Shown: piece by piece, positions 9,257-60,433 of the stretch
How the letters are laid out: every line of letters begins with the position of its first letter
How positions within the stretch are numbered: the stretch's first letter is position 1
Assembly (NCBI RefSeq): GCF_000751075.1
Contig: NZ_CCMG01000002.1
Coordinates: forward strand, 62,001-126,000
Direction: 5' to 3'
Length of the DNA: 64,000 nt
Origin: Rickettsia tamurae
Lineage (GTDB): Bacteria; Pseudomonadota; Alphaproteobacteria; Rickettsiales; Rickettsiaceae
The notes under the pieces: model-generated
The model's input: the letters and a program-made list of their open reading frames with translations, nothing else
The model's database searches: none
What the model was told of the DNA's origin: nothing
Translations under genes and position numbers: made by a program

Positions 9257-9328
9257 TACTTTTTATATTTAAATTTTAAAAAGGATTTTATTGGATATTG
9301 AGGAAATAATCAATTGTTATTGTGCTGA

Positions 9329-9492
9329 GGTTCTGCACACTTTTAATATTATAATCATAATTATGACTCTTTTTAGCTGCAAATTATAAGATTTTTTTGA
9401 AATAGGAACAACTATTACTACAAAAATCTTATTAATTTTCGCTTAAAAATATCTCATAATTATAATCATTAATCAAAAGCGTACAGAACCTA
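9329..9492. repeat. About 165-bp palindromic MITE-like element, copy B
   Basis: Left end GGTTCTGCACACTTTTAAT and right end AAAAGCGTACAGAACCTAG are inverted repeats. The internal sequence matches the element at 57361-57529 in the opposite orientation: both contain AAGCGAAAATTAATAAGATT and ATTATGRCTCTTTTTAGCTGC or their complements. It fills most of the 233-base gap between the reductase gene and vapC, and it is not one of the common RPE types in this window. Confidence 0.8.
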
Positions 9493-9918
9493 GATAGATA
9501 TTGATTTAATATGTCCTAACTTAGCCCAGTTAAGAATTTTTTGATCTCTAGTAAGTAGGGTAGCTCCAAGACATTTTATTGTTGCTACAATAATTCTATC
9601 AGCTAGGGCACCATGAAAATCATCCATAAGAGAAATGCTTTCAGCAGCAATCTCCAGAGAAATATCTTTAATAGATAATCCGTTGATATTTGTTATAGAG
9701 TTTAGAAAGTCCTTTATAGGTTCGTAAATATTAATACGCTTTTTAAAGTTAAGCATAGCTATTTCCTATAATGAGATAGAACTTAGGAATAATTGCGAAT
9801 TTTCTTGAGCTAAATTGATTTTGTGTTTTATTTGTTCTGATAATTCTTCAGGTTGTAATAGTGACCACAATAAAACATGGGTATCTAGTACTAAACCATT
9901 ATTAGTTCTGCATTCCAT
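9490..9918 (-). pseudogene. vapC: VapC-type PIN-domain toxin with an in-frame amber codon
   Basis: The N-terminal PIN motif is clear (GLVLDTHVLLWSLLQPEEL, with the first catalytic Asp). The C-terminal part has the other PIN signatures (HGALADRIIVATIKCLGATLLTRDQKIL). The frame is interrupted at 9766-9768 by a TAG exactly where family members have Trp in the motif SISLWEIA. Reading resumes in the same frame with EIAMLNFKKRINIYEP. A TGG-to-TAG change therefore splits an otherwise complete toxin of about 140 residues. It is also fused in frame to the antitoxin upstream. PIN toxins are Mg-dependent RNases that cleave tRNA or rRNA; this copy is probably inactive unless the amber is suppressed. Confidence 0.85.
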
Positions 9919-36268: not shown

Positions 36269-36520
36269 GCATTGCTAAATAAATATTGATGGTTTGAAAA
36301 AGCTACGTCATTGCAAGGAGACGTTGTTGCATGGATCGAAAAACGCACTGGGTGTCATACCGTGGCTTGACCACGGTATCCAGAAAAATAACTTAAAATA
36401 CTAATAATCTTAGTATTTTAAACTGGATCCCGCGATCAAGTCGCGGGATGACACTGGAAAAACTGATACACGCAACAATGCTCGCTCGCAATAACGATAT
36501 CTATCTTTATTTAGCAATGC
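36269..36520. repeat. Four-layer nest of palindromic elements
   Basis: From outside in: GCATTGCTAAATAAA / TTTATTTAGCAATGC; then CGTCATTGCAAGGAG / GCTCGCAATAACG; then TTGTTGCATGGATCG / ACACGCAACAA; then GTCATACCGTGGCTTGACC ... CAAGTCGCGGGATGAC. All lie between pgeF and the deformylase-like gene with no coding potential. Confidence 0.85.
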
Positions 36521-44117: not shown

Positions 44118-44215
44118 CTGTGTACAAAAGTCAAATTTTCAAAAAAAATCTTATTAATTTTCGCTAAAAAATATCTCAAAATAGCAAGTCAATTAGAAAC
44201 CTTCACAGAACCTAA
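44118..44215. repeat. Truncated copy C of the MITE-like element
   Basis: ATTCTGTGTACAAAAGTC at the left, AAAATCTTATTAATTTTCGC inside and CACAGAACCTA at the right match the elements at 9329 and 57361 with an internal deletion. It lies between ppdK and rnpB; the rest of that gap (43971-44280) is AT-rich without a gene. Confidence 0.65.
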
Positions 44216-56687: not shown

Positions 56688-57336
56688 ATGTTCAAAAAAA
56701 CAATCTTCAAATCATAAAAATATTTCCGCAAGAAGTATGGAGTTTAGAGCAGGTGAAAAATTATATGCGGGTGGAGGCTAGTTATGACGATGATTTAATA
56801 GTCGGATTAATTGATGCGGCAATCAACAGCAGCAGAGAATTTTACTAAGCTAAATTTTATATCAAAACAAATCAAATTTATTTGTAATATTTCAGGAAAA
56901 GGGAAGTTTTCATTAAAATATAATCCCTTACTAAAAATAACAAAGATAAAAAAAATTTAAAGACCAAGAAAATGATTTAGCGGTAGATGATTATATGATT
57001 GATCAAAATATTTTAACTCTAAATAAAGCCTTAAATAATGAAGAGCTGACGGTAAAATATATAAGCGGTTACGATAAAAATAATATTCCGCATGCTATAA
57101 AACACGGAATAATGCTACATATAGCCGAGATGTATGATCGTCAAGCTACGAACTGCCTCGGTCTTTCAAAAGAGGTAAAAATTTATATTTGCCTTATAGA
57201 AATATACAAATTTAGGAAATATGGCATTCATTTTGATGTCATTCCCACGAAGGCGTTGTTGCGTGGACCGGTTTTTCCGTCATTGCGAGGAAATTGCATA
57301 GCAATTGACGAAGCAATCCAGTTAAAAATTCTGTAA
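56688..57336 (+). pseudogene. gp6-like head-tail connector protein, degraded
   Basis: One frame reads FPQEVWSLEQVKNYMRVEAS and YDDDLIVGLIDAAINSS, the typical start of phage gp6-like connectors. Another frame continues with AENFTKLNFISKQIKFICNI. After a further break comes ALNNEELTVKYISGYDKNNI, then PHAIKHGIMLHIAEMYDRQA, the conserved C-terminal helix. The final residues (after FDVIPTKALLRG) are RPE sequence. It lies directly after the capsid gene, as in gene transfer agents. Confidence 0.75.
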
Positions 57337-57604
57337 ATCAGAATTTTTTTATTATTTTTCCTAGGTTCTGTGCACTTTTGATTAATGATTATAATTATGA
57401 GATATTTTTAAGCGAAAATTAATAAGATTTTTGAAGGAATAGTTATTCATATTTCAAAAAAAATCTGATAATTTGCAGCTAAAAAGAGCCATAATTATGA
57501 TTATTCTATTAAAAGTACACAGAACCTAGATTGCTACGCTCTTTTTAGTCGCTCGCAATGACGATTTGGTATCAACGCAAACAAACCTTATGCAGGAATG
57601 ACAT
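57236..57604. repeat. Four-layer nest: three RPE types around a 169-bp element
   Basis: From outside in: GATGTCATTCC / GGAATGACAT; then GTTGTTGCGTGGACC / TCAACGCAAACAA; then CGTCATTGCGAGG / GCTCGCAATGACG; and in the loop of the last, the 169-bp element at 57361-57529. Confidence 0.85.
57361..57529. repeat. 169-bp palindromic MITE-like element, copy A
   Basis: Ends CTAGGTTCTGTGCACTTTT / AAAAGTACACAGAACCTAG are inverted repeats with a single mismatch. The internal halves (TTATGAGATATTTTTAAGCG; CTAAAAAGAGCCATAATTAT) are diverged complements, so the entire element is one long imperfect palindrome. It carries no open frame. Other copies lie at 9329 (inverted) and 44118 (deleted). Confidence 0.85.
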
Positions 57605-57630
57605 AACAAATATAACAGCTCAGGTATCTT

Positions 57631-58227
57631 ATGAATTTTCACGATATACGCATGCCGGAATTTATTGAAAGTTTTGCGGTTGGGAAGCCGGAATTTTCTA
57701 CTTCTCATGCTATAACTAAATCCGGTAGAGAAGCAAGACATTTAGACCGCAACTATGGCTGTCAGAAATATTTAATCAAAAATGCAAAGTTAAGCAGTAC
57801 AGAATTTGAGCAATTTAATAGCTTTTTTAAAGCAAGACGTGGAAGTAATTTTGCTTTTAGATTTAGGGATTATGCCGATTATAAAGTAACGAACGGAATG
57901 ATTGCTAAGGGTGACGACAATTTAAATAAATTTCAGCTAAAGAAGATATATAGCGATCCTATTGTTCCTTACGAACGAGTTATCACTAAACCGGTTAATA
58001 GTGTAATTCTATATATTAATAATGTAAGAGCTATGGGCATTGTAGATTACAACGATGGTATAGTAACCTTACCAATTCCCTTAGGTCAAGATGTAATTTT
58101 AACTGCTGATTTTACTTTTGACGTAGCTGTTAGATTTAGTATAGATAGTTTTGAATATTCTTATTGTAATGACGGCTCTATAGAATTATCCAACATAGAA
58201 TTAGTAGAGGTAGCTATACTCGTTTAA
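57631..58227 (+). CDS. DUF2460 protein (gene transfer agent gp12-like, phage tail)
   Basis: The 198-residue protein starts MNFHDIRMPEFIESFAVGKP and continues with GREARHLDRNYGCQKYLIKN, FNSFFKARRGSNFAFRFRDY and ADYKVTNG, the DUF2460/TIGR02217 signature. The conserved end is FDVAVRFSIDSFEYS. In Rhodobacter-type gene transfer agents this is the distal tail protein gp12, directly before gp13. It is the only intact gene of the module here. The stop and last few residues lie in an RPE. Confidence 0.9.
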   Translation: MNFHDIRMPEFIESFAVGKPEFSTSHAITKSGREARHLDRNYGCQKYLIKNAKLSSTEFEQFNSFFKARRGSNFAFRFRDYADYKVTNGMIAKGDDNLNKFQLKKIYSDPIVPYERVITKPVNSVILYINNVRAMGIVDYNDGIVTLPIPLGQDVILTADFTFDVAVRFSIDSFEYSYCNDGSIELSNIELVEVAILV

Positions 58228-60272: not shown

Positions 60273-60433
60273 CGTCATTGCAAGCGGTATTGTTGTGTGA
60301 ACCGGTTTTCCCGTCATTGCGAGGAAATTGCATAGCAATTGACGAAGCAATCTCAGGAGTTTGTTATTATTTCATGAGATTGCCATGCAGTCTACGACTG
60401 CTCGCAATGACGGGGTGATATCCACGCAATGAT
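60273..60433. repeat. Nest of palindromic elements between infC and the E2 gene
   Basis: A partial CGTCATTGCAAGCGG arm and TATTGTTGTGTGAACCGG / ATATCCACGCAATGATG enclose a full CGTCATTGCGAGG / GCTCGCAATGACG element. The same element type therefore appears inside a copy of itself. Confidence 0.85.

What the first reader, a model, noticed from the sequence alone, without database searches (positions are those of the whole stretch)
57236..57604. A four-deep nest of palindromic elements with a different 169-bp element at its core
Three RPE arm types are arranged concentrically and the innermost loop is split by a 169-bp palindromic element whose ends are CTAGGTTCTG / CAGAACCTAG. The RPE sequences on both sides (CGTCATTGCGAGG ... 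GCTCGCAATGACG) would be continuous without it. This gives a readable insertion order: GTCATTCC type first, then TTGTTGCGTGGA type, then CGTCATTGCGAG type, then the 169-bp element.
Basis: seen in the sequence. Interest (0 to 1): 0.75.

Follow-up and report, generated by a model that had tools for sequence, protein, structure and literature searches.

The report
Mobile hairpin inside a palindrome composite
In a Rickettsia genome, a 163-base hairpin of a kind that is present at some sites in one species and cleanly absent from the same sites in others sits inside a composite of palindromic repeats that also occurs elsewhere as one block, so only the last of the four proposed insertion steps is supported, and the hairpin was likely moved by a transposase made by another element.

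Summary
The nest is real. Two of the three repeat layers have exact arms (GTCATTCC, CGTCATTGCGAG); the right arm of the middle layer is degenerate. The '169-bp element' is a 163-bp terminal-inverted-repeat element (57364-57526) with TA on both sides inside a former CTAG. Matches to it occur in 23 of 23 Rickettsia genomes searched, the own one included. At three other loci exact empty orthologous sites show that it duplicates TA: it is a MITE. In another Rickettsiales genome the same kind of MITE shares 19 of its 20 terminal bases with an 870-bp IS5-family element that also has TA on both sides: the likely type of transposase. No partner was found in Rickettsia.

The 'readable insertion order' is not supported for the three repeat layers: the composite recurs at other sites as a block without the MITE, layer order is permuted elsewhere in the window, and the one orthologous composite locus examined shows whole, outer-exchanged, internally deleted and empty states, no outer-only step. 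At the window locus the nest sits where up to four prophage genes (about 1.5 kb) present in relatives are missing. As a nest it is ordinary; the resolved TA duplication and arm-to-arm copying within the hairpin are the interesting part.

The parts
57238..57245 (+). outer layer, left arm GTCATTCC (O); RPE-4-like by recalled naming
57256..57267 (+). middle layer, left arm TTGTTGCGTGGA (M); RPE-7-like by recalled naming
57278..57289 (+). inner layer, left arm CGTCATTGCGAG (I); RPE-6-like by recalled naming
   Evidence: (I8)
57310..57346 (+). central part of the composite: GAAGCAATCCAG and the small hairpin AAATTCTGTAAATCAGAATTT
   Evidence: recurs in other composite copies
57362..57363 (.). TA, left copy of the target duplication (target C-TA-G, C at 57361)
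   Evidence: rule established at other loci
57364..57526 (+). 163-bp MITE, ends GGTTCTG / CAGAACC, inside the composite
57404..57495 (+). conserved core of the MITE, shared with copies whose outer arms differ and, in part, with genomes of other Rickettsiales families
57527..57528 (.). TA, right copy of the target duplication (followed by G at 57529)
57552..57563 (-). inner layer, right arm
57568..57587 (-). middle layer, right arm, degenerate
   Evidence: by comparison with other copies; not matched within 2 mismatches
57595..57602 (-). outer layer, right arm GGAATGAC
56693..57212 (+). remnant of the head-tail connector gene in four out-of-frame pieces (the relative's intact protein matches PF05135), left border of the lost stretch
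57631..58227 (+). open DUF2460 phage gene, right border of the lost stretch

Best explanation
A composite Rickettsia palindromic repeat carries, inside its central stem, a 163-bp hairpin flanked by TA on both sides, a MITE that likely arrived last by inserting into a CTAG there and that was likely moved in trans by an IS5-family (IS427-like) transposase. Shown: the TA-to-TA anatomy here; exact empty sites with one TA at three other loci; composite copies elsewhere without the MITE; CTAG as a natural variant of CTGG at the insertion point. Inferred: the insertion at this locus itself (no empty ortholog was seen among the loci fetched), and the transposase, which is inferred from an 870-bp IS5-family element with near-identical ends in another Rickettsiales genome. 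The three outer layers are one modular repeat (outer pair, middle pair, inner pair) that is gained or lost and internally deleted as a block; it most likely reached this site as a block, or was left there when the prophage genes between two repeat-bearing sites were deleted. The MITE's arms are kept complementary at least partly by arm-to-arm copying (one case seen at an orthologous site), for which replication template switching is the likely mechanism.
For: MITE: best copies 98% identical at other places in other species; 41 of 45 of the best-matching copies examined have TA at both ends. Exact empty sites: L078 (G007) is empty in L144 (G022); L087 (G000) is empty in L168 (G011) and L171 (G010); the orthologous trio L088/L090/L095 (G011/G010/G008) is empty in L004 (own genome, within about 1.5 kb of another copy); flanks overlap by exactly TA (for L168 and L171). 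Partner: L295 (G028; its contig length 1,851,238 is that of Rickettsiales bacterium Ac37b by P0022): 870 bp, TA on both sides in CTAG, two overlapping ORFs, both over the NCBIfam IS5_3 cut-off, left end 19 of 20 identical to that genome's MITE. IS427-group elements of Paracoccus seen in the passage are 832-865 bp, 10 of 11 with 2-bp duplications, some with two overlapping ORFs and a frameshift motif (PMC3281130, passages). Composite as a block. Gain or loss, erosion. Missing prophage genes. Hairpin upkeep: 50 pairs, 94.9% of cells paired, 29 pairs with double changes, 0 of 500 shuffles as high on any of five measures; orthologous arm rewritten in G010 (L090) but not in G011 and G008 (L088, L095).
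Against: No relative with the composite but without the MITE at this very locus was seen. No IS5-type partner with matching ends was found in Rickettsia: the IS5 transposase was compared only with the loci held, and the end-motif searches (the listing of 68 was truncated) showed no clear 0.9-kb IS in the genus; one 855-bp pair in G016 (L299) encloses only an HTH piece that matches the IS481 NCBIfam model below its cut-off. A fourth locus (window 9328-9493) gives an unclean junction in G006. Arm ends were delimited by complementarity and TA, which favours pairing in the outer helix; 9 of 37 candidates were left out of the alignment because their ends were unclear. 4 of the 45 copies lack TA at one end. 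The assignment of L295 to the IS427 group rests on size, duplication and ORF layout, not on a tree.
Confidence: 0.75

Rival explanations
1. One reading: four separate insertions at this locus, each inside the previous one.
For: The arms are concentric; inner-only, middle-plus-inner and three-layer left halves all exist in the genus, so nested assembly may have happened once, long ago, in the composite's ancestor.
Against: The composite recurs as a block; order is permuted elsewhere; in the 8 genomes judged, an orthologous locus shows whole, exchanged, deleted and repeat-free states only; relatives carry other repeat types or none at the left and right sites here.
Confidence: 0.1
2. Recombination between two repeats flanking the prophage genes deleted the genes and left a chimeric nest (left half from the left repeat, right half from the right one). 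Partly compatible with the best explanation, which leaves the route of the composite open.
For: The nest sits at the missing stretch; repeats of other types lie at the left site in 8 of the 10 relatives readable there (G022, G006, G015, G014, G002, G001, G018, G021; not G003, G013) and at the right site in 5 of 12 (G015, G003, G002, G001, G014) (read by eye); genes between are gone; RPE-6 repeats bound an 88-kb inversion in R. africae (PMC2694212, passages).
Against: Both halves fit one composite type as found whole in L040 and L041, so no mixing of unlike halves is needed; G006 lost part of the same stretch without this nest.
Confidence: 0.35
3. The MITE is moved by an IS630/Tc1-mariner-type transposase, which also duplicates TA (recalled).
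For: TA duplication; DDE_3 transposases in 10 of 23 Rickettsia genomes, 8 over the family's cut-off, 107 matches in one.
Against: Clear ends were readable only in G020 and are TATAGC..., unlike TAGGTTCTGTG; of 30 loci around such transposases one has a single end-motif hit, with 3 mismatches. The IS5-type element matches 19 of 20 end bases. Not every DDE_3 element's ends were determined.
Confidence: 0.08
4. The MITE core is a functional structured RNA or DNA site kept by selection, and mobility is secondary.
For: Core recognisable in other Rickettsiales families (20 of 105 genomes match, 11 of them outside the family, several weakly); strong covariation; no Rfam match.
Against: Copies are polymorphic between species and cleanly absent at some sites; double transversions (95 cells) outnumber G-T pairs (45) among departures from the commonest pair, which fits arm copying at least as well as selection on RNA.
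Confidence: 0.2

Closest known systems
Rickettsia palindromic elements RPE-4, RPE-6, RPE-7 and 'extended RPE-4' (PMC3767692)
   Same: ATGAC-bearing palindromes, different groups at the same orthologous site, common origin proposed; our composite shows such arm types joined in one block.
   Different: The paper (passages and section 12 read) treats in-gene insertions; in what I read it describes neither a concentric order nor a foreign element inside.
CGTC-tagged REPs (PMC3733652)
   Same: CGTC/TGTC-tagged short palindromes, mostly head-to-head pairs; the paper equates CGTC-1 with RPE-6 and CGTC-4 with RPE-4 in R. conorii; no dedicated transposase.
   Different: The paper lists 8-9 bp stems; our copies are long multi-layer composites. 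Passages only were read.
TA-flanked bacterial MITEs: Correia/NEMIS, RUP (PMC2229807)
   Same: Under 200 bp, AT-rich, TIRs, TA at both ends, long stem-loop, no protein.
   Different: Own sequence family; hairpin over nearly its whole length; likely IS5-type rather than the IS630-type partner proposed for RUP. Passages only were read.
RPE-5 of R. conorii (PMC2267715 table: 115 bp, 45 found, intergenic, structured)
   Same: Intergenic class with a conserved predicted structure; grouped apart from the ATGAC-rich RPEs in PMC3767692, Table 2.
   Different: No RPE-5 sequence was available to me, so identity is untested; the length differs.
IS5 family, IS427 group (PMC3281130)
   Same: About 0.85 kb, 2-bp duplication, two overlapping ORFs; L295 fits.
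   Different: L295 is in another Rickettsiales genome, not in Rickettsia. Passages only were read.
Quasipalindrome template switching (e.g. PMC7202029, PMC8604942; starts of abstracts in the search listing only)
   Same: One arm of an imperfect inverted repeat is rewritten from the other, several bases at once, as in L090.
   Different: Here it would act on a mobile element across its family; one orthologous case was seen.

Membership tests
TA-type MITE | terminal inverted repeats | tested here: met
   22-nt arms at 91%; 45 copies compared
TA-type MITE | target site duplication shown by empty sites | tested here: met
   three other loci, flanks overlap by exactly TA; one further locus unclean; no empty site at the window locus itself
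TA-type MITE | no transposase inside, under 200 bp, multicopy | tested here: met
   163 bp; nine near-full-length copies in the own genome (40 of 66 candidates scored); 23 of 23 genomes match, own included
TA-type MITE | autonomous partner in the same genome | tested here: inconclusive
   none found in Rickettsia (truncated, 77 on held loci only); partner-like IS with matching ends in G028
IS5 family, IS427 group (for the partner L295) | IS5-type DDE transposase, about 0.85 kb, 2-bp duplication, two overlapping ORFs | tested here: met
   NF033580 110.7 and 124.4 bits against cut-off 110; 870 bp, TA on both sides; group features from PMC3281130 passages; no tree was made
IS630/Tc1-mariner MITE | ends match an IS630-type element of these genomes | tested here: inconclusive
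   readable ends (G020) do not match and 30 loci show no such ends apart from one 3-mismatch hit; not every element's ends were determined
RPE-4/-6/-7 (composite) | sequence match to the published RPE consensus | not testable with these tools
RPE-5 (MITE) | sequence match to RPE-5 | not testable with these tools
   only its length and counts were seen
Rfam structured RNA | match to a described family | tested here: not met
   0 matches at E up to 1 in window 56900-57800

The most novel reading that the evidence does not exclude
A Rickettsiales-wide family of hairpin transposons, 163-167 bp from TA to TA, keeps a fixed structured core while its arms drift freely in sequence because one arm is repeatedly rewritten from the other by template switching; an IS5-type transposase needs only the outermost bases, so paired arms rather than a fixed sequence are what is inherited.
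Probability: 0.35. Interest if true: 0.65.

Novelty: new member of a known kind. Interest (0 to 1): 0.45.

Why it matters
How Rickettsia palindromic repeats spread has been open: a 2007 review lists their target duplication with a question mark (PMC2229807, Table 1, passage). Clean TA duplications and a partner-like IS make this testable for one family. The composite shows that apparent nesting depth is not by itself an insertion clock in these genomes, which cautions against reading order from concentric arms. The orthologous arm rewriting gives a concrete case of how a hairpin element can stay a hairpin.

Tried and rejected
IS630 as the partner was my first idea because of TA; the ends I could read do not fit. 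A 4-bp CTAG duplication was my first reading of the window; comparison of 45 copies (Y-TA...TA-R in full in 39 of 45) and the empty sites reduce it to TA. A chimeric nest made by repeat-repeat recombination was considered and kept as a rival. The 855-bp end pair in G016 (L299) and the 2.3-kb pair in G014 (L300) were looked at as possible autonomous elements; the first holds only an IS481-like HTH piece, the second ORFs that look unrelated and were not searched. Plasmid records gave no MITE. Rfam gave nothing. MITE copies with composite-repeat motifs within 100 bp: 3 of 45 (L001, L006, L112), so no preference for these repeats as targets is claimed.

Papers: PMC3767692 passages and section 12; PMC3733652, PMC2229807, PMC2267715, PMC1950309, PMC3281130, PMC2694212, PMC4316617, PMC1525189, PMC10969869 passages only; the R. 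felis genome paper was not held. On print: no target duplication for a Rickettsia palindromic repeat was found in the searches or in the passages read; most subscription papers are outside that library and I did not see the original RPE papers.

Full report
What is there. The window lies in a Rickettsia genome of 1.45 Mb (G000; species not named). The nest 57236-57604 sits in a decayed prophage between a head-tail connector remnant in out-of-frame pieces (56693-57212) and an open DUF2460 gene (57631-58227). Arms: GTCATTCC (O) and CGTCATTGCGAG (I) are exact on both sides; the middle arm TTGTTGCGTGGA (M) is exact on the left and degenerate on the right. Between the central stem and the right arms lies the palindromic element. 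Its real borders are 57364-57526 (163 bp), flanked by TA at 57362-57363 and 57527-57528, within C-TA...TA-G.

The inner element is a MITE. Matches to it occur in 23 of 23 Rickettsia genomes searched, the own one included, and in 37 rows in the own genome, which count some places on both strands; nine copies there are near full length (40 of 66 candidates scored). The closest copies, in G007 and G005, are 98% identical and lie at other sites. I compared the ends of 45 copies, 40 fetched from the best rows plus 5 of the own genome; some are orthologs of each other. TA stands on the left in 44, on the right in 42, on both sides in 41; Y before and R after as well in 39. Empty sites settle the duplication: for L078 the orthologous place in L144, for L087 the places in L168 and L171, and for the orthologous trio L088/L090/L095 the place in L004 of the window's own genome have the two flanks joined with a single TA. 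At a fourth locus (window 9328-9493) G006 lacks the element but the junction differs by some bases, so I do not count it.

Which transposase. DDE_3 (IS630-type) transposases match in 10 of 23 Rickettsia genomes, 8 of them over the cut-off, but the only ends I could read, in G020, are TATAGC... and do not fit. G028 is a genome of three contigs in another Rickettsiales family; its main contig has the length of that of Rickettsiales bacterium Ac37b (P0022). There an end-motif search finds 10 exact end pairs, each 163 bp from TA to TA, and an eleventh with one mismatch. That genome also holds L295: 870 bp, TA on both sides in CTAG, ends TAGGTTGTGTGAAGTTTTCT against TAGGTTCTGTGAAGTTTTCT of the MITE (19 of 20; 15 of 20 against the window's MITE), and two overlapping frames that each exceed the NCBIfam cut-off for an IS5 family transposase (110.7 and 124.4 against 110). 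IS427-group elements of Paracoccus in the passage seen are of this size, 10 of 11 with 2-bp duplications, and some have two overlapping frames (PMC3281130). I infer an IS5/IS427-type transposase acting in trans. In Rickettsia itself no such partner was seen, though one search was truncated and one search covered only loci held.

The three outer layers are one modular block. Of the 30 copies printed, one being the window, none of the other 29 shows the MITE at that point. L040 and L041 are near-complete paralogs of the nest without it (183 nt at 87%, 215 nt at 78%). At the point of insertion 22 of the 29 other copies were readable by the script: CTGG in 15, CTAG in 5, other in 2; 7 were not read. 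The window itself holds permuted nests: I-M-A near 36306-36485 (with an O-type arm opposite the A arm), I-M-I near 60273-60421, O-M-I here. At one orthologous composite locus (query L141) 20 genomes show the right flank and 8 could be judged: G007 has the three-layer block, G022 a block with I as outer layer, G002 and G001 internally deleted blocks, and G010, G011, G008 and G009 no such repeat; the other 12 were not judged because the left flank, a multi-copy sequence, was not found in place or not read. These are gain or loss and erosion of a block, not steps of outer, then outer plus middle.

The window locus in relatives. With both flanks found, the distance between connector and DUF2460 is 556-2085 bp in nine relatives (G001 only by an 18-base left anchor) and 393 bp here. 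In the 14 relatives' loci compared, a head completion protein is found in 11, a tail completion protein in 10, a HEPN-like protein in 8 and its nucleotidyltransferase neighbour in 5; all four are absent here. G014, split over two contigs, was not in that count. At the left site 8 of 10 readable relatives carry other repeats (G003 and G013 none); at the right site 5 of 12 do (by eye). None of these has this composite here. G006 lost part of the same stretch without this nest. So the nest marks a deletion; whether as its cause or as a later arrival I cannot tell. RPE-6 repeats bound an 88-kb inversion in R. africae (PMC2694212, passages).

How the MITE stays a hairpin. I delimited 37 copies by TA and complementarity, dropped 9 with unclear ends, and aligned 28: 21 from Rickettsia and 7 from other Rickettsiales genera (A1); length is 163-167 bp in the 28. 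The consensus hairpin has 50 pairs; 94.9% of cells are paired, 29 pairs have changes on both sides, and none of 500 shuffles reaches any of the five measures (related rows make that number no probability, and the way ends were chosen favours the outer helix). Departures from the commonest pair are 95 double transversions, 47 double transitions, 45 G-T pairs and 71 mismatches. In the orthologous trio, the right arm of L090 (G010) carries the reverse complement of its left arm over a stretch where L088 and L095 keep another, shared sequence (37 of 40 arm bases complementary); L087 and L009 are near-perfect palindromes (39 and 40 of 40). This looks like quasipalindrome template switching, a process known from other systems (listing only). 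The core is shared by copies with quite different arms and is recognisable in other families of the order (20 of 105 genomes in all, several weakly); Rfam has no match.

Verdict. RPE numbers used here are recalled labels; PMC3733652 equates CGTC-1 and CGTC-4 with RPE-6 and RPE-4 and PMC3767692 argues that RPE-4, -6 and -7 come from one origin.

Noticed in passing
L090 against L088 and L095 (orthologous MITE copies in G010, G011, G008): One MITE arm reads as the reverse complement of the other arm in G010 only: several base changes and a one-base deletion together.
   Followed up: yes
L118 1968-2025, L126 992-1049, L127 959-1016; also G028:C1:784736-784791: Mini versions of 56-58 bp consisting of the two ends only, without the conserved core, with TA at their ends.
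   Followed up: partly
L063 2726-3389 (G022) and orthologs: A HEPN-like/nucleotidyltransferase gene pair, of the kind known as toxin-antitoxin pairs (recalled), sits inside the prophage tail-gene block: the HEPN-like gene in 8 of 14 relatives compared, its neighbour in 5; both are missing in the window genome's block.
   Followed up: partly
L137 (G000:C14:118700-120700): Three copies of the MITE or its core lie within about 1.1 kb, with three different sets of outer arms.
   Followed up: no
L104, L107, L110 (orthologous copies in G011, G010, G008): MITE copies whose left arm belongs to one arm type and right arm to another, as if recombined.
   Followed up: no
L277/L298 (G028): A MITE copy sits beside a second IS5-family transposase frame (81% identical over the N-terminal ORF), perhaps inserted at the end of that insertion sequence.
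   Followed up: partly
L279 and L295 (G028): The MITE copy and the partner-like IS share an identical left flank of at least 120 bp and then differ, so both sit at the same CTAG at the end of a repeated sequence.
   Followed up: partly
window 9328-9493 and 44144-44214: A second near-complete MITE copy (92%) and a partial one in the same window.
   Followed up: partly
L142 and L166 (G010 and G000, same flanks by eye): The left side differs by one extra layer of about 40 bp between direct TCGTCATTGCGAG-type repeats, so layers can be lost or gained on one side alone.
   Followed up: partly
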